A stretch of DNA of 64,000 nucleotides from Vibrio sp. 10N.261.55.A7 (GTDB taxonomy: Bacteria > Pseudomonadota > Gammaproteobacteria > Enterobacterales > Vibrionaceae): assembly GCF_002877365.1 (NCBI RefSeq), contig NZ_MCWZ01000101.1:1-64000 (forward strand), in the 5' to 3' direction. Below the pieces are notes generated by a model that made no database searches, was not told the DNA's origin, and saw nothing but the letters and a program-made list of their open reading frames with translations. The translations under genes were made by a program, and so were the position numbers. Shown here one piece after another: positions 1-59,981 of the stretch; position 1 is the stretch's first letter, and each line of letters opens with the position of its first letter.

Positions 1-627
1 TAAATTATCAATAATTTATTTTTTATTAAACACAAAAAATTGATATCACCTGATGACATCAATTATTCCGCAATCAAATACATCACAAATGGCGACAGAT
101 CGATACTCAACCATCGCCAAGATATTACTTGCCTGGCCTTTGTATCCCAGAAGCCTGCAGCCCAGCACTAAAATTAGGTTATAAGGCATTGAGGGATAAA
201 CACTGAAGCCACCCTCAGAACAGCAGCGAACTCTTGTTACTTCATTCTTAGCGTATGAGATACTTAATTTGACACTGTCTGGTAAACGAAGGATTTATAA
301 TATTCGGGCTAACAGTGATAGTGCTTTTCATCGAACCCTTGAAAGGAGTATAAATGATGTGTAATTTAGTTATCTTCTTCCTTCACTAGCTTTAATAAAA
401 AAGTAAAGACACAGAAAATAAATATGACTTCGAGGTAGTATCGTGGAACAATAAATTTGGCCGAAAGGTTATAGACATTGGCATATCTTAAATGATCCAT
501 GAAATGCTAATTTAGGAAAGTGTGTAATTCAGAAATATCCAAAGACGTGCTAAACCATTCATTATGGCTAATTCATTAGGCTAAGGACGTTAATTTGTTT
601 TACCTCGACATATCAGGTTGGATAAAC
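1..627. other. intergenic, AT-rich, no gene seen
   Basis: I find no supportable gene in this stretch. Bases 1-18 form an 18-bp AT-rich palindrome (8-bp arms around CA). Bases 539-576 are one copy of a degenerate 38-bp repeat whose second copy lies at 5941-5978. The right end abuts the terminal inverted repeat of an IS5-family relic at 628. Confidence 0.5.
539..576 (-). repeat. 38-bp dispersed repeat, copy 1
   Basis: Shares 35 of 38 bases with 5941-5978 (core ATTCATTATGGCTAA). Read on the minus strand both copies give an open peptide containing ELAIMNGL, so both may descend from the same coding element, possibly a transposase N-terminus. I cannot name that element. Confidence 0.6.
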
Positions 628-2642: not shown

Positions 2643-4124
2643 ATGAATACAGAAAAAACCCAACTCGTCTCTCAGCACATCATTGAAGACACCTGTGAAT
2701 GGCAGATCATGCATGGCGTTGCTTTTCGCCAACCAGACAACACGGCAAGGCACGTACCGTTTAGCATGGCGCCAATGACAATGGAACGCTCAGCGTATGA
2801 ACATCTGCGCAAGGTAACGCCTTTGATCGCTAAACTGGTCAGTAATGTGTCTGAGGATCACAGCTTCCTGCAAACATCTTTGAGCGCGATGGCGAGAGCC
2901 GATCCGTTTTTTGGCCGTTTGATGGAACTTCATCATCAAGCGCATGGTGACGCTAGCCACCCCAAACAGCCCGATCGTCAGCCTTTACTCCTAATGAGAA
3001 CGGATTTTATGGATGATCGCCAACATGGTGCCAAGGTGATTGAATTTAACGGAATCGCTGCTGGCATGGGGCCATTTGGGCAACGCGCAACGGAATTGCA
3101 TCAATTTGTGCGCAATCAGTGGGGGAATGTCTATCAACACTACCTAGAAGATGATTCGGCAATACCCGCTGAAAATTGCGGTATGGAGCAGCTCGCGTTA
3201 GGCATAACCACAGCTGCAAGAAGTGTGAAATCCCACTTTTCTGCTATCAACAAAAAGGAAGATCAAGAAAAACCCACCTTCTTAATGGTTGTCCAGAAAA
3301 ATGAGGATAACGTGTACGATCAGCACCTACTAGAGGTCGCATTGCAAAATCAAGGCGTGTGCACGGTGAGGCGCACGTTTGACCAGCTAAGCAGTCAATT
3401 ATCTAGCGGAGAAAATCAACGCCTTATCCTTGAGGGCATTGGTGCCATTGACGCTGTTTATTTAAGAGCAGGATACCAATATTCAGACTATTGGGCGCCA
3501 GAGCTGAATGAAAACATTTGCTGCCACACATTAAGCCAAACTCGCCTGTTTATTGAAAAGCATTATGTCGCAATGAACGCCACCATCAGTCAACAATTAG
3601 CGACCAGTAAGTCCATGCAAATGTTGCTAACCCAAATGCCAGCAGAGCAATACTGTCATTGGGGGCTAACACTGGATGAAGCCAATCTTGTCAAAAGTGT
3701 ACTGGCGGATATGAAGCCAATAACCGCAGAGAGTATTGACTGGTTTAACACCCGTGCAGACAAAAAAGAGTGGGTACTTAAAAATCAGGGCGAAGGCGGT
3801 GGCCATTGCGTATTTGGTGAAGCCATTAGTGCCACGTTGGCCGAATTAAAAACCGATGACTACGACGCGTGGGCGTTAATGCAGCGGCTCTACCCACACG
3901 AGCGTGACACAGCCACCATCGCCGTTCGAGATGGAAAACAAACCGTAGTCGACGACCTTGTCAGTGAGGTGGGATTGTTTACTGTGCATTATCAGGGAAA
4001 ACCTGTGACCGACAATCATGGCTATGCTGGTTATCTTATTCGCAGTAAACCTGCGAGCGAAAATGAAGGGGGCATTCACAGTGGGCAAGGCATCTTGGAT
4101 TCACTTGTTCTGCTCAATCGCTAA
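2643..4124 (+). CDS. eukaryotic-type glutathione synthetase-like ATP-dependent ligase
   Basis: 493 residues, matching in length and motif order the eukaryotic glutathione synthetase family (ATP-grasp), not the roughly 316-residue bacterial GshB. Correspondences to the family as I recall it: RTDFMDD at 119-125; KVIEFNGIAAGMG at 131-143 (family: IEINTIAASF); VYLRAGYQY at 272-280 (family: VYFRDGY); NATISQQLATSKSMQ at 312-326 (family: DIATQLAGTKKVQ); the glycine-rich ATP loop LKNQGEGGGHCVFGE at 379-393 (family: LKPQREGGGNNLYGE); and GGIHSGQGILD at 476-486. It probably joins a glycine-like amine to a gamma-glutamyl dipeptide or a related acceptor. Several acidic or polar substrate residues differ from the eukaryotic enzyme, so a different product is possible. 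Likely co-transcribed with the upstream C-S lyase. GGAATAAT precedes the start. Confidence 0.8.
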   Translation: MNTEKTQLVSQHIIEDTCEWQIMHGVAFRQPDNTARHVPFSMAPMTMERSAYEHLRKVTPLIAKLVSNVSEDHSFLQTSLSAMARADPFFGRLMELHHQAHGDASHPKQPDRQPLLLMRTDFMDDRQHGAKVIEFNGIAAGMGPFGQRATELHQFVRNQWGNVYQHYLEDDSAIPAENCGMEQLALGITTAARSVKSHFSAINKKEDQEKPTFLMVVQKNEDNVYDQHLLEVALQNQGVCTVRRTFDQLSSQLSSGENQRLILEGIGAIDAVYLRAGYQYSDYWAPELNENICCHTLSQTRLFIEKHYVAMNATISQQLATSKSMQMLLTQMPAEQYCHWGLTLDEANLVKSVLADMKPITAESIDWFNTRADKKEWVLKNQGEGGGHCVFGEAISATLAELKTDDYDAWALMQRLYPHERDTATIAVRDGKQTVVDDLVSEVGLFTVHYQGKPVTDNHGYAGYLIRSKPASENEGGIHSGQGILDSLVLLNR

Positions 4125-56516: not shown

Positions 56517-56610
56517 TAACCTTTCCTCATTCTCAATCCTCAAATCACGTGTTTGTCATAACCAGTAAAAAAGAGGAGAGCTCACTATTACATCAATAAT
56601 ACACCTTTTA

Positions 56611-56635
56611 AAATAGCGGATGAATTCCGCTATTT
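56611..56635. promoter_or_regulatory. perfect palindrome upstream of the efflux operon
   Basis: AAATAGCGGA and TCCGCTATTT, 10-bp arms around TGAAT, 95 bp upstream of the adaptor start and 163 bp after the TetR gene. No T-run. Candidate operator for the neighbouring TetR regulator. Confidence 0.55.
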
Positions 56636-56797
56636 AGACGCTATAATATCAACATGTGGTGGTATTTATGGTTCACACCTAAACTTCAAGTGTGCCTATC
56701 GTGTATCTAAGAATTATAACTCATATCAATCTAATTTATATATAGACATTAATAATTGCTTAAGTGATTAGATTTTTATTAGCAATGAGACTGGCGT

Positions 56798-57229
56798 CTA
56801 GCGTAAATTCACAATAGCATAGCCAATACAAACATAGATGCATTTCAGCACTTCTTCCTCGGCCCCCTGGATAAGATGCTTTAAATTGCTGACTCCCTCT
56901 CGTGTTGGAATAATGGGGGCTGCCGCGAGAATGGCGGACTTAAACTCCTTATTATTGGATAAGCCGTTGACCCAAGAATGATAAAATGCATCCGTCGACG
57001 TGAAATCAAGGTGCTTCATTAGAACTCGATTGAGTTTTAATTTTAGAACTTGAATGAGATCCGCTTTCTTTGGGAAGTGGCGGTTAATCCCTGAGCGAGA
57101 CACGCCACAATGATCGGAAAGATTAGAAAACGTAAGTTGGTTGAAACCTTGCTCTAACGTAATCTTAAAAGCAGCATCAATGATTTTCTGCTTGGTTAAC
57201 TCAGCTTCTGCGACGCTTGCTCTACCCAT
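56798..57229 (-). CDS. short TetR-family regulator
   Basis: 143 residues, shorter than the usual 190-200. The helix-turn-helix is intact (LTFSNLSDHCGVSRSGINRH followed by FPKKADLI). The ligand domain is brief and ends CIYVCIGYAIVNLR. AGAGGATAAACT precedes the ATG. Same strand as, and upstream of, the efflux operon, which it probably represses. Its ending may be native or a truncation. Confidence 0.85.
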   Translation of the reverse strand: MGRASVAEAELTKQKIIDAAFKITLEQGFNQLTFSNLSDHCGVSRSGINRHFPKKADLIQVLKLKLNRVLMKHLDFTSTDAFYHSWVNGLSNNKEFKSAILAAAPIIPTREGVSNLKHLIQGAEEEVLKCIYVCIGYAIVNLR

Positions 57230-57396
57230 AGTTTATCCTCTTATTACCTGAATCTCTCATATCGTATATCAACACGCTGGAAACAAAGCAGTCAAATAAC
57301 ATACAACATTGATAAACCATGCTTGGCAATAGAGACTAAATGATAACCCTGTAATTCTGAGCCCAATTTGAATCTCCAATATTTCATTGTAAACTC

Positions 57397-57410
57397 ACTT
57401 TGGGGCAAAT
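57397..57410. repeat. 14-bp direct repeat ACTTTGGGGCAAAT, copy 1
   Basis: Identical to 58660-58673 in the same orientation. The two copies bracket a single AT-rich gene. Confidence 0.8.
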
Positions 57411-57421
57411 CTGAGCTATAC

Positions 57422-57476
57422 ATATCAGCTAGATCACATACTTTGCTAAATTAGCAATCTATGAATTAGCTGATAT
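57422..57476. promoter_or_regulatory. nested palindromes downstream of the orphan membrane-protein gene
   Basis: ATATCAGCTA (57422-57431) pairs with TAGCTGATAT (57467-57476). Within it lies the independent palindrome TTGCTAA-A-TTAGCAA at 57443-57457. Possible terminator of the gene ending at 57505, operator for the TetR gene starting at 57229, or an element end. Confidence 0.5.
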
Positions 57477-57504
57477 AGCATTAAAAACACCTACAAACTA
57501 CTGA

Positions 57505-58377
57505 CTAGATTTTCTCAAGCACAAAATGCTGCTTTTCTGCTTGCTCTACACTTCGTAGATGCTTTATTAACTCAGTCAGTGGCTTTATCAATTCTTCTCG
57601 TTGCACCCCGCTGTCAGAGTTATCTGTAGTCCTAAGATACGCATGGAGCACCCAAGCGAGTTGACTGTATCTACTTGCTATTCCACTATCTTCAAATTCT
57701 ACAAATGTTGACATATATCTTAATTGATCCATGAAAGATGCGATTGTTCCTACCGCCTTCTCACTAATCATATGCTGGTCTTTAATAACTACTTTTTTAA
57801 TAACTATAAGACTATGACCTTTACCGTTGGTATCTAGTTGCTCTTTTATGTCATTAACTAAGTCTACAAACTTCATCTCATTGGCTAAGTGCATTTCCCC
57901 TTTCTCGATAAAGTCGCAATACTTGAGTGCCACTTGTATCAACTTCTCATACAAATCCATATCCAAAGGTGATATAGGTTTTCTAACTCCTTCCTTGATA
58001 TATGGAAACAGAAACTGGTGAGCATATATCGGCTTAATAGACTCTTTTGGAAAGTTAGCTTCAGCGTATTTAATGAACTCTTCCCTGTGCTTGTAGTAGT
58101 TGGTGAAGATGTTCTGTTCTTGTGAGAGTTCAATCTGTCTAGCTGTTTGGATAGATCGATGGTTCAGAGCGACTAAGCCAACAAGAGGAATGGCAGAGGA
58201 AAGTAATTTGATTGGTATATTAAATAACTCCCAAAAGCACTCTAAGCCAGTATGTGTAGGATCGAATGTTAGCGGTACGGACAGTAGAACCATTCCTGAT
58301 GCTACCATTGATGCAGCAACAGGTATTCCTAGTGCAGTTCTAAACGACCATAGCTGAGTTAGCTTTCTATTCTTCAC
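57505..58377 (-). CDS. orphan membrane protein of unknown function
   Basis: 290 residues from GTG58377, with AGGGAG eight bases upstream. Two N-terminal transmembrane helices lie at about 17-36 and 52-70 (IPVAASMVASGMVLLSVPL, IPIKLLSSAIPLVGLVAL). A helical segment (NHRSIQTARQIELSQEQNIF) and a long cytosolic domain with KHREEFIKYAEANF follow. Two N-terminal helices plus a soluble helical domain recall some abortive-infection and other defence membrane proteins, but I cannot assign a family. Visibly more AT-rich than neighbours and flanked by 14-bp direct repeats, which suggests transfer. Confidence 0.75.
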   Translation of the reverse strand: MKNRKLTQLWSFRTALGIPVAASMVASGMVLLSVPLTFDPTHTGLECFWELFNIPIKLLSSAIPLVGLVALNHRSIQTARQIELSQEQNIFTNYYKHREEFIKYAEANFPKESIKPIYAHQFLFPYIKEGVRKPISPLDMDLYEKLIQVALKYCDFIEKGEMHLANEMKFVDLVNDIKEQLDTNGKGHSLIVIKKVVIKDQHMISEKAVGTIASFMDQLRYMSTFVEFEDSGIASRYSQLAWVLHAYLRTTDNSDSGVQREELIKPLTELIKHLRSVEQAEKQHFVLEKI

Positions 58378-58659
58378 TGAAACAACTCCCTAAGCACTTG
58401 ATAGATATAAACTAACATGGTTCATGAGAGACTATCAGAGTAATGGCTAATTAGATAAGGTGTTTGATCACGTTTCAGTTCACTGCTTAGCATTGGTATA
58501 TATATCGCAACTAGAACAAATCGATACTTTTATCTTCTATTTGTAGATCTTGAGGGTGTAGTGGATTAGCCTGATTGGTAAAATAGTTAGAGTTCTAGAC
58601 ATAATGAAAAGTAAGTCAAATTGAGAGACTTGAAATTAGCCTCAATCCTGCTCTGGCTT

Positions 58660-58673
58660 ACTTTGGGGCAAAT
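58660..58673. repeat. 14-bp direct repeat ACTTTGGGGCAAAT, copy 2
   Basis: Identical to 57397-57410, 1263 bp apart. The core TTTGGGGCAAA is nearly palindromic. Confidence 0.8.
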
Positions 58674-58706
58674 GACGTGTTTATAGTTGGCCTAGTCAAT
58701 GGTCGT

Positions 58707-58740
58707 AGGGGATAAAGGGGTCAAGGGGATAAAGGGGTCA
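58707..58740. repeat. 17-bp tandem duplication
   Basis: AGGGGATAAAGGGGTCA occurs twice without gap or mismatch. It abuts and overlaps the left end of the REP-like inverted repeat. Confidence 0.85.
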
Positions 58741-58869
58741 GGTCTTGCGTTTTGCTTACAGCCAGTAAAATTAGAATAGTGACCTGTTCACTTTATTCCC
58801 TAAACACAAATGGCCTAGCTAAAAAACCAGCCCACCTCATCAAAAAGGCACAAGGCAAGACCTGCCCCC
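58734..58869. mobile_element. REP-like solo inverted-repeat element
   Basis: GGGGTCAGGTCTTGC at 58734-58748 is complementary in 14 of 15 positions to GCAAGACCTGCCCCC at 58855-58869. Such GGTCTTGC/GCAAGACC ends are known to me from the neighbourhood of IS200-like Y1 (RAYT) transposases in gammaproteobacteria; here no transposase lies between them. Probably a non-autonomous remnant. Confidence 0.5.
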
Positions 58870-58877
58870 TATATTTT

Positions 58878-58953
58878 TACTATGAATACTCTTCTTACTT
58901 TAGTTGGCGCTAAGTAAATAAACAGCGCGTCGCGCTAAAGTTGCTTAAAGAGA
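58878..58953. repeat. 76-bp repeat, copy B
   Basis: About 93% identical to 47974-48049, the upstream region of the DUF1566 gene, in the same orientation. No DUF1566-like reading frame lies downstream of it; the REP-like element begins 9 bp away. It is probably the surviving promoter of a deleted paralogue. Confidence 0.9.
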
Positions 58954-59066
58954 AACTTTCTACTCGCCAATTTGGAATGCACCCTGTAACCCTGTAACCC
59001 TGCGCGATATCACCGCAATAACTAAAGGCTTAGATATTTCCGCACTAACGCTGGCGATTAACCAAA

Positions 59067-59981
59067 CTATCCACCGCTAGTCGTTCCGAACTTTTCAATG
59101 ACAAAGTCCAGAAACACCCTGACTCGTTCGGGCTGGTACTCTCCTCCTCGAAACAGCGCACTTAAAGGAAACTTGAGTGGTTCGAACCCAATGTCGACTC
59201 TTTTCAATCGTCCTTGCTCTACATGAGGGGCAGCGATTATGTCAGGTTGATAGCTCACCCCAACTCCAGAAAGCGTCAATTGACGAACCAATCTCGGACT
59301 GTTGCTTTTGAAAACAGCACGCACGGCTTTACTGGTGTTATCTGAGTTCTTACACAATGAACGCGCTATTGGCCAACGAGCGGTCGGGTGAAGGTTGCTA
59401 TCAATAAGACATGGAACGCTATCCGTTAAGCTCGGGGCACTCTCGGTTTCCAAACCATACTGCGCAACCAGTTCAGCCGTTGCGTACAGTGAGCTTTGGG
59501 TCGACATGATCTTACGACAGTTTAGACTAGAGTCGTTCAGTTCACTGGCTCGAAAAGCAATGTCGATACCTTGCTCCACTAAGTCGAGCTTTTGATTGGT
59601 GACGATCAGGTCAATTTGAATATCGGGGTAACGCGTATGAAACTCTGGAATGAATGGGCTGAGTAGCTCTTCAGCGAAGCCTTGTGACGCCGTGATACGC
59701 AGTGGGCCAGACGCCTCATTATTGCTTGCGTGAAGGTGACTGTATAGCTTGTCTACTTGCAATAAAACCTTCTGAGCTTGTTGGTAATATTCTCGGCCAG
59801 ACTCCTCGACTGATAGCTTTCGAGTTGTGCGATTAAACAGTTTCACCCCAAGTTCTTTTTCGACCTGATTGACGTATTTGGATGTGAGAGATTTTGAGAT
59901 CCCTAGTCGTTCAGACGCAGCAGTAAAAGACCCTGTTTCAATCACCGCGACGACTGTTCTCATTCCATCAATAGTGTCCAT
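59067..59981 (-). CDS. LysR-family transcriptional regulator
   Basis: 304 residues. Helix-turn-helix IETGSFTAASERLGISKSLT followed by SKYVNQVEKELGVKLFNRT; effector domain begins LRITASQGFAEELLSPFIPE. CrgA-like group. Divergent from the glutathione S-transferase gene, with about 100 bp between starts, which it likely regulates. No ribosome-binding site is obvious before the ATG. Confidence 0.93.
   Translation of the reverse strand: MDTIDGMRTVVAVIETGSFTAASERLGISKSLTSKYVNQVEKELGVKLFNRTTRKLSVEESGREYYQQAQKVLLQVDKLYSHLHASNNEASGPLRITASQGFAEELLSPFIPEFHTRYPDIQIDLIVTNQKLDLVEQGIDIAFRASELNDSSLNCRKIMSTQSSLYATAELVAQYGLETESAPSLTDSVPCLIDSNLHPTARWPIARSLCKNSDNTSKAVRAVFKSNSPRLVRQLTLSGVGVSYQPDIIAAPHVEQGRLKRVDIGFEPLKFPLSALFRGGEYQPERVRVFLDFVIEKFGTTSGG

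What the first reader, a model, noticed from the sequence alone, without database searches (positions are those of the whole stretch)
57397..58673. AT-rich orphan membrane gene flanked by 14-bp direct repeats
ACTTTGGGGCAAAT occurs at both ends of a 1.28-kb segment that carries only one gene, a two-helix membrane protein with a soluble helical domain, unlike its neighbours in composition. No integrase or transposase is present. It could be a cargo unit moved by an enzyme in trans, and single-gene membrane effectors of this build are often anti-phage. This is the best candidate in the window for a novel mobile defence-like gene, though that role is inference.
Basis: partly seen in the sequence, partly recalled or inferred. 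Interest (0 to 1): 0.55.

Follow-up and report, generated by a model that had tools for sequence, protein, structure and literature searches.

The report
Mobile one-gene cassette in Vibrio
A 1.27-kb piece carrying a single membrane-protein gene looks like one member of a family of small mobile gene cassettes in Vibrio and some relatives, which share two special end sequences, carry many unrelated genes including known virus-defence genes, and in which no enzyme to move them was found.

Summary
The two 14-bp repeats exist as stated, but a repeat of that size is not by itself beyond chance. They do mark real ends. The right repeat is the tip of a ~115-bp right end (RE, 58557-58670); 84 of 227 genomes of the genus match part of its consensus, 43 of them over at least 85 bases up to the tip. 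A ~100-bp left end (LE, 57434-57522) scores more weakly. For 32 of 51 REs an LE lies on the inner side facing outward; paired units span 0.8-7.7 kb. Cargo differs between units and includes Drt3a/b, CAP12-TIR and decarboxylase genes. A Drt3 unit is 95% identical, LE to RE only, at unrelated sites in two genomes; at one plasmid site another LE-bearing content sits between the same flanks. Queries with eight tyrosine recombinases found none in the 32 units. The inner 37 bp of RE resemble IS3-type ends. Relatives of the cargo protein sit beside repressors in PM2-like Vibrio prophages; one weakly resembles the retron Ec48 effector. Defence is plausible, untested. The moving enzyme is unknown.

The parts
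57389..57401 (.). left target half-site GTAAACTCACTTT outside the unit
   Evidence: reads outward as AAAGTGAGTTTAC, which fits the flank consensus seen after 51 REs and, more weakly, 47 LEs (this LE is not among the 47); sequence
57402..57407 (.). left core GGGGCA, inside the left 14-bp repeat 57397-57410
   Evidence: in most other LEs the core reads GGACA instead
57408..57522 (-). left end (LE), read outward; model match 57434-57522; contains the palindrome TTGCTAAATTAGCAA (57443-57457) and an inverted repeat 57422-57436/57462-57476
   Evidence: nhmmer E 3e-5, 19.5 bits with a model trained without this genome; inverted repeat. The match stops short of the tip and the inner IS3-type repeat is not recognisable here
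57505..58377 (-). cargo gene, 290-aa protein with an N-terminal membrane hairpin, a long helix and an unmodelled C-terminal part
   Evidence: family motif around HRS..QNxFxNYYKHxEEF in the 13 aligned sequences
58557..58670 (+). right end (RE): IS3-type repeat TGTAGTGGATTAG... at the inner side, tip CTCTGGCTTACTTTGGGGCA at the outer side
   Evidence: nhmmer E 1.5e-29 with a model trained without this genome; consensus matched in part by 84 of 227 genus genomes, over at least 85 bases up to the tip by 43
58665..58670 (.). right core GGGGCA, inside the right 14-bp repeat 58660-58673
58671..58684 (.). right target half-site AATGACGTGTTTAT outside the unit
   Evidence: fits the flank consensus AAAATGAGTTAG; the RE-like copy on own-genome contig C40 (L138) has a similar flank
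441..540 (+). a second LE in the window; its cargo and RE would lie left of the contig start
   Evidence: nhmmer E 7.4e-11, 37.5 bits; sequence

Best explanation
The segment from core 57402 to core 58670 is a non-autonomous mobile cassette: LE, one gene, RE. It belongs to a family in Vibrio and some related genera, in which different genes lie between the same two ends. Shown for the family: paired ends in fixed outward orientation, unrelated cargo, the same unit at unrelated sites, and a different LE-bearing content between the same flanks. Inferred: a recombinase acting in trans, most likely of tyrosine type, joins RE and LE at a 6-bp core inside a 12-6-12 bp dyad, forms a circle, and inserts it into another dyad site. 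Also inferred: RE-core-LE, as it would lie on the circle, is a 200-280 bp IS3-derived MITE-like sequence that serves as a portable attachment site, so a gene between two such sites becomes a cassette. The cargo of this unit is most likely a phage-derived membrane effector for exclusion or abortive infection of other phages (inference).
For: RE consensus in 84 of 227 genus genomes in part, 43 over at least 85 bases up to the tip; RE and LE in the window with models trained elsewhere. LE on the inner side in the correct orientation for 32 of 49 REs and wrong for 0; with a model trained without this genome and a partly different set, 32 of 51 and wrong for 1. Drt3a/b unit: one 4,094-bp block at 95% identity between L111 and L139, nothing else aligning at E 1e-5 in the fetched stretches; L111 and L169 share flanks (98% and 97%) up to TGGACAAAA on the left and from TGGGGCAAA on the right, with different content that has its own LE. 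L090 and L091 share a block ending at GGGGCA. Flank conserved for 12 bases after the RE core, near background from base 14. No relative of 8 tyrosine recombinases among 288 reading frames of the 32 units, with positive controls found. IS3-type ends: a 1,256-bp element with OrfA-like and OrfB-like genes bounded by similar ends. Cargo relatives directly beside LexA-like repressors in the three PM2-like prophages opened.
Against: No enzyme found. No empty site for this locus. The window LE is weak, carries about 14 extra bases before the core and lacks a clear inner IS3-type repeat; its left core is GGGGCA, not the usual GGACA. 19 of 51 REs have no correctly placed LE in the fetched stretch. The alternative contents L169 and L168 have an LE, but their right ends do not match the RE model beyond the tip, and p319 (L168) shares the left flank only further out. 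Counts contain related rows (L120/L121 are one duplicated island; L090/L091 and L111/L139 are the same cargo; L104/L109 share 1.68 kb; two REs of L122 share one LE). LE-like matches also occur alone: 6 at E below 0.01 in 348 kb chosen for another reason. Two copies with both MITE ends intact show no 3-bp target duplication (L093, L124). The cargo's own defence role has no direct support.
Confidence: 0.7

Rival explanations
1. The ends are static IS3-derived repeats (MITEs) scattered beside genes, and units move by homologous recombination between repeats, for example after natural transformation.
For: RE and LE carry IS3-type ends; 11 of 51 REs are followed within 90 bp by a facing LE, giving MITE-like copies of 193-283 bp. 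Lone LE matches occur.
Against: In the L111/L169/L139 comparison the switch between shared and unshared sequence falls inside a core of about 9 bp, and the models find no repeat copy on the outer side; outer flanks are conserved for only 12 bp.
Confidence: 0.13
2. A DDE transposon of the mobile-insertion-cassette kind: cargo between transposon ends moved in trans by an IS3-family transposase.
For: 37-bp match to IS3-type elements with OrfA-like and OrfB-like genes; IS3-type transposases occur in or near some units.
Against: In the units the IS-type ends point outward from the cargo, the reverse of a transposon; the cargo boundary is the core about 100 bp further out; no 3-bp duplication in the two copies that keep both ends.
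Confidence: 0.1
3. The units are minimal relatives of GMT islands or of strand-biased circularising integrative elements (SEs) and are mobilised by those recombinases.
For: GMT islands and SEs are Vibrio elements with tyrosine recombinases and defence or resistance cargo (PMC12039261, PMC10214605, passages seen); SEs also have a 6-bp spacer between inverted end motifs. One locus (L148) holds a unit 4.5 kb from a GmtY-like gene.
Against: In none of 20 loci does the GmtY or GmtY-like gene lie between an LE and an RE; four others have a lone LE and one a partial RE. Only about 9-10 kb on either side was fetched in most, less at some contig ends, so longer islands are not excluded. A three-gene recombinase island near a unit in G018 ends in a different sequence. 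No tyrosine recombinase relative in the units.
Confidence: 0.07
4. Coincidence: a chance 14-bp repeat around an ordinary chromosomal gene.
For: Such repeats arise in 16 of 60 simulated windows.
Against: The RE and LE matches far exceed shuffled windows; the cargo family is patchy, 16 of 227 genomes.
Confidence: 0.03

Closest known systems
Integron gene cassettes (from general knowledge)
   Same: One or few genes per unit, no recombinase in the unit, site-specific recombination at a dyad, diverse cargo, common in Vibrio.
   Different: Here both ends are conserved sequences of about 100 bp split at the middle of the site; attC features and neighbouring integron integrases were not formally tested.
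Mobile insertion cassettes / MITEs derived from insertion sequences
   Same: Insertion-sequence-type ends without transposase, with passenger genes; IS3-type 37-bp ends present.
   Different: IS-type ends face outward from the cargo and are subterminal; unit boundaries are the recombination-like cores.
Gamma-Mobile-Trio (GMT) islands (Mahata et al. 2024, not held here; known from passages of PMC12039261 and recall)
   Same: Vibrio, defence-rich mobile cargo.
   Different: No GmtY relative in the 32 units; none of 20 GmtY loci has the gene between these ends in the fetched stretch.
Strand-biased circularising integrative elements (SE) and Tn554/GInt relatives (PMC10214605, PMC9345347, passages seen)
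   Same: Inverted end motifs with a 6-bp spacer whose two copies may differ.
   Different: SEs encode intA, tfp, intB and srap; no tyrosine recombinase relative was found in the units.
Retron Ec48 2TM effector (NF038235)
   Same: Membrane helices followed by a helical domain; one cargo relative (L119) matches at E 9e-4.
   Different: Below the curated cut-off (18.9 against 65 bits); the window protein does not match; no reverse transcriptase gene in the unit.

Membership tests
LE/RE cargo-unit family (defined here) | RE at one side, complete to the GGGGCA tip | tested here: met
   98.4 bits, E 1.5e-29, model positions 2-115
LE/RE cargo-unit family (defined here) | LE at the other side, facing outward | tested here: met
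   19.5 bits, E 3e-5, positions 5-89 of 102; weak, and the match stops short of the tip
LE/RE cargo-unit family (defined here) | dyad half-sites outside both cores | tested here: met
   AAAGTGAGTTTAC and AATGACGTGTTTAT, judged by eye against consensus AAAATGAGTTAG
LE/RE cargo-unit family (defined here) | empty or differently filled site at this locus | tested here: inconclusive
   no other of 227 genus genomes gave both flanks in one place; at most two candidates per genome scored
GMT island | GmtY recombinase inside the element | tested here: not met
   no relative of a GmtY-like query in the 32 units; GmtY not between LE and RE in 20 loci
SE | tyrosine recombinase genes intA and intB in the element | tested here: not met
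   no relative of 8 tyrosine recombinases in 32 units; SE's own proteins were not used as queries
Integron cassette | attC site with R and L boxes, neighbouring intI | not tested
   only looked at by eye
IS3 mobile insertion cassette | IS ends bounding the cargo, facing inward | tested here: not met
   ends are subterminal and face outward
IS3 mobile insertion cassette | 3-bp target duplication | tested here: inconclusive
   absent in the 2 copies with both ends intact, L093 and L124
Retron Ec48 effector | match to NF038235 above cut-off | tested here: not met
   window protein no hit at E up to 1; best relative 18.9 of 65 bits
Retron Ec48 effector | adjacent reverse transcriptase and ncRNA | tested here: not met
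   single gene in the unit; the only Rfam match in 57000-59200 was a sub-threshold lncRNA hit

The most novel reading that the evidence does not exclude
A general gene-cassette system independent of integrons: an IS3-derived, MITE-like sequence carries a recombination core and acts as a portable attachment site. Any gene that comes to lie between two copies becomes a cassette, moved by an undescribed recombinase supplied in trans, and the system is a major carrier of single-operon defence genes in Vibrio and Shewanella.
Probability: 0.35. Interest if true: 0.87.

Novelty: new variant of a known kind. Interest (0 to 1): 0.62.

Why it matters
If right, small gene units with shared ends can be found by their ends alone, without knowing the cargo. 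That gives a way to list candidate defence genes in Vibrio, explains how single operons such as Drt3 reach plasmids and chromosomes without a recombinase of their own, and leaves one clear enzyme to look for.

Tried and rejected
The 14-mer as sole evidence was rejected as statistically weak. GMT islands as owners: in 20 loci the GmtY or GmtY-like gene never lay between LE and RE in the fetched stretch. A recombinase island in G018 as owner: it lies about 20 kb from the unit and its own end differs. Close relatives of the cargo in genome contigs and viral contigs by peptide patterns: none. Fold searches: no match at E 0.001 or better in BFVD or PDB, on a weak model. Solved structures by sequence: best E 0.05, not meaningful. 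Rfam: only a hit below the gathering score. Literature: searches for the sequence CTTTGGGGCAAA and for SE, GMT, MITE and mobile-cassette terms listed no description of these units; of the listed papers I looked into passages of four only, and most subscription papers are not held, so this is not proof of absence.

Rows dropped before counts: L110 and L113 (same records as L090 and L102), L115-L119 (cargo relatives), REs whose match does not reach the 3' part (for example own-genome C277, L114); L121 was dropped too, and L189-L194 were added. In one search at most 3 candidates per genome were scored, so copy numbers are lower bounds; the figures 43 and 8 for matches reaching the tip were counted by hand from the listings. 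In the cargo scan 64 proteins were given: 62 from the paired units including the window, one from C277 and one from L168; proteins of duplicate units (L091, L121, L139) and three smaller ORFs (two of L122, one of L126) were left out. The Pfam, PADLOC and NCBIfam tallies showed only the first 25 of 61, 112 and 68 families.

Full report
Observation. The 14-mer occurs twice as stated and nowhere else in the 4.94-Mb assembly. In 60 Markov copies of the window, repeats of at least 14 bp at 300-1500 bp spacing occur 0.3 times on average, so the repeat alone says little. The segment holds one convincing gene, 57505-58377 minus strand, and is 37.7% G+C against 45.1% for the window, though the 850 bp to its left are equally AT-rich.

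What the repeat is part of. A search of 227 genomes of the genus with 56600-59400 returned many short matches that stop at the right repeat. The conserved piece is about 115 bp, 58557-58670. Its consensus is matched in part by 84 of 227 genomes; by my count of the listing, 43 of them match over at least 85 bases up to the tip (at most three candidates per genome were scored). In an evenly drawn sample of the order 26 of 394 genomes match in part, several only over the inner 37 bases, and 8 up to the tip, three of them outside the genus. A strict pattern in named genomes found nine records, seven Vibrio and two Shewanella. I call this piece RE.

A second end. Reading outward from cargo in other loci, a different end of about 100 bp recurs, with the motif GCTAATTTAG and a tip of TTTTGTCC, the complement of GGACA. 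I call it LE. With models trained without the window and its genome, the window has RE at 58557-58670 (98.4 bits) and LE at 57434-57522 on the minus strand (19.5 bits); the best values in 20 shuffled windows were 10.0 and 6.7 bits. The window LE is a poor copy: about 14 extra bases before the core, a match that stops short of the tip, and no recognisable inner repeat.

Units. Of 49 REs, in loci fetched because they hold RE, 32 have an LE on the inner side facing outward, and none has one in the wrong orientation; unit lengths run from 771 to 7729 bp. With models trained without this genome, a stricter demand on the RE tip, one row dropped and six loci added, the figures are 32 of 51, and 1 with a wrongly oriented LE. 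Some rows are related to each other, as listed under evidence against. In 19 loci chosen for another reason (348 kb around GmtY genes) the LE model gave 6 matches and the RE model 1 partial match at E below 0.01.

Mobility of the family. The Drt3a/b unit of a Vibrio coralliilyticus OCN008 plasmid (L111) matches another genome (L139; G151, which by the length of its first contig is V. hepatarius) over 4,094 bp at 95%, LE to RE, and nothing else in the two stretches aligns at E 1e-5. At the OCN008 site, plasmid p337 of strain RE22 (L169) has the same flanks, 98% over 1.8 kb on the left and 97% over 4.9 kb on the right, with an aminotransferase, a dihydrodipicolinate synthase relative and a transporter in between and its own LE. 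The change from shared to unshared falls in TGGACAAAA on the left and TGGGGCAAA on the right. Plasmid p319 of strain RE98 (L168) has a third content with an LE; it shares the right flank from the core on, but the left flank only further out. The right ends of L169 and L168 do not match the RE model beyond the tip, so either other right-end types exist or these are altered. Another pair, L090 and L091, shares a block with a WYL-TerB-ATPase-YkgJ operon that ends at GGGGCA with unrelated right flanks.

The site. Aligning 51 REs, sequence outside the RE core is conserved for 12 bases (AAAATGAGTTAG) and near background from base 14; with the RE tip CTGGCTCACTTT this makes a 12-6-12 dyad around GGGGCA. 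Flanks of 47 LEs show a similar but weaker pattern. Both flanks of the window unit fit by eye. Dyad arms around a 6-bp centre are typical of tyrosine recombinases (established knowledge), but the enzyme here is not identified. Queries with eight tyrosine recombinases found none among 288 reading frames of the 32 units, while positive controls were found. Among the listed PF00589 matches in 15 genomes I saw none inside a unit by comparing coordinates by hand (the list is cut).

IS3 connection. The inner 37 bp of RE, TGTAGTGG...TTTGGCCAC...TTAGAG, resembles the ends of IS3-type elements; in L188 a 1,256-bp element with OrfA-like and OrfB-like genes (named by my reading, not by a model search) is bounded by such ends on both sides. 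In the units these ends sit next to the cargo and point away from it. RE, core and LE together therefore look like a MITE with IS3-type ends; 11 of 51 REs are followed by a facing LE within 90 bp, 193-283 bp from the start of RE to the inner limit of the LE match, some of these LE matches weak. Two copies that keep both ends show no 3-bp duplication. I infer that the MITE-like sequence carries the recombination core and that a gene between two copies becomes a cassette. That step is not shown.

Cargo of the family. Sixty-four cargo proteins include matches to Drt3a, Drt3b, PDC-S46, PDC-S35, HEC-06, CAP12-TIR, GmrSD_N, HipA_2, ZntR, a cation efflux pump, UbiD, UbiX, SnoaL_2 and endonuclease I, besides inserted transposases (only the first 25 families of each tally are shown).

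Cargo of this unit. The protein has no hit in Pfam, PADLOC or NCBIfam and one PHROG of unknown function (E 6e-17). Its family is in 16 of 227 genus genomes, own included. Of the 17 loci that this search gave, only the window copy has both LE and RE around it; one other (L208) has a lone LE. In the phage collection, 9 records match, 8 of them Vibrio; in the three I opened, all PM2-like (Vinavirales) prophages of V. cyclitrophicus, the gene follows directly on a gene noted as LexA-like. In G011 it follows a gene that I read as a repressor too. Such prophages carry accessory genes often linked to defence (PMC11630473, passages seen). Two of 13 relatives match the retron Ec48 2TM effector model at E up to 0.1; the best, L119, reaches E 9e-4, 18.9 bits against a cut-off of 65. 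PADLOC 2TM models match one member at E 2e-4 and 5e-4. I take a membrane effector that excludes or aborts other phages as most likely, at about 0.5, with no direct test.

Verdict. Novelty is marked as a new variant of a known kind, because non-autonomous cassettes are known; that the literature lacks these units rests only on the searches listed, and the main GMT paper could not be read.

Noticed in passing
window 441-540 (+): A second LE of the same family (37.5 bits); its unit would run off the contig start.
   Followed up: partly
L114 (own genome contig C277:71000-76500), 1724-3497: Another unit in the same genome, with a Fic-domain-like 454-aa protein as cargo, LE at 3402-3497 and a partial RE at 1725-1785. 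The Fic name is mine, from the sequence, not from a search.
   Followed up: partly
L138 (own genome contig C40), 7988-8101 and beyond: Third RE-like copy of the genome; about 35 bases after its core resemble those after the window's right core, as if both sat in related target sites.
   Followed up: partly
window 58707-58878: REP-like palindrome (GGGGTCAGGTCTTGC... / ...GCAAGACCTGCCCC) with a tandem 17-bp repeat just right of the unit; similar stretches in several genus genomes. The link to REP-associated transposases is recalled.
   Followed up: no
L140 8906-17252 (G018): Three genes in a row, two clearly and one weakly like tyrosine recombinases, plus a RecD2-like helicase, in a stretch of at least 29 kb present twice, in opposite orientation, at 100% identity in one genome.
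   Followed up: partly
L111, L168, L169: One plasmid region in V. coralliilyticus holds three different contents in three strains: Drt3a/b, a 725-aa unknown protein, and an amino-acid metabolism operon.
   Followed up: yes
L168 and L169 right ends; L122 5784-5888; L124 10186-10291: Right ends that share only the GGGGCA tip or a variant (GTCGAAACAAG..GGGGCA) hint at further right-end types of the family.
   Followed up: no
L010-L012, last gene: Relatives of the window gene lie right after the gene noted as LexA-like in these PM2-like prophages, apart from the extra genes next to the integrase in L011 and L012.
   Followed up: partly
window 56798-57229 (-): The TetR-type regulator left of the unit is only 143 aa and matches just 28 residues of a LuxT C-terminal model; possibly shortened.
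   Followed up: no
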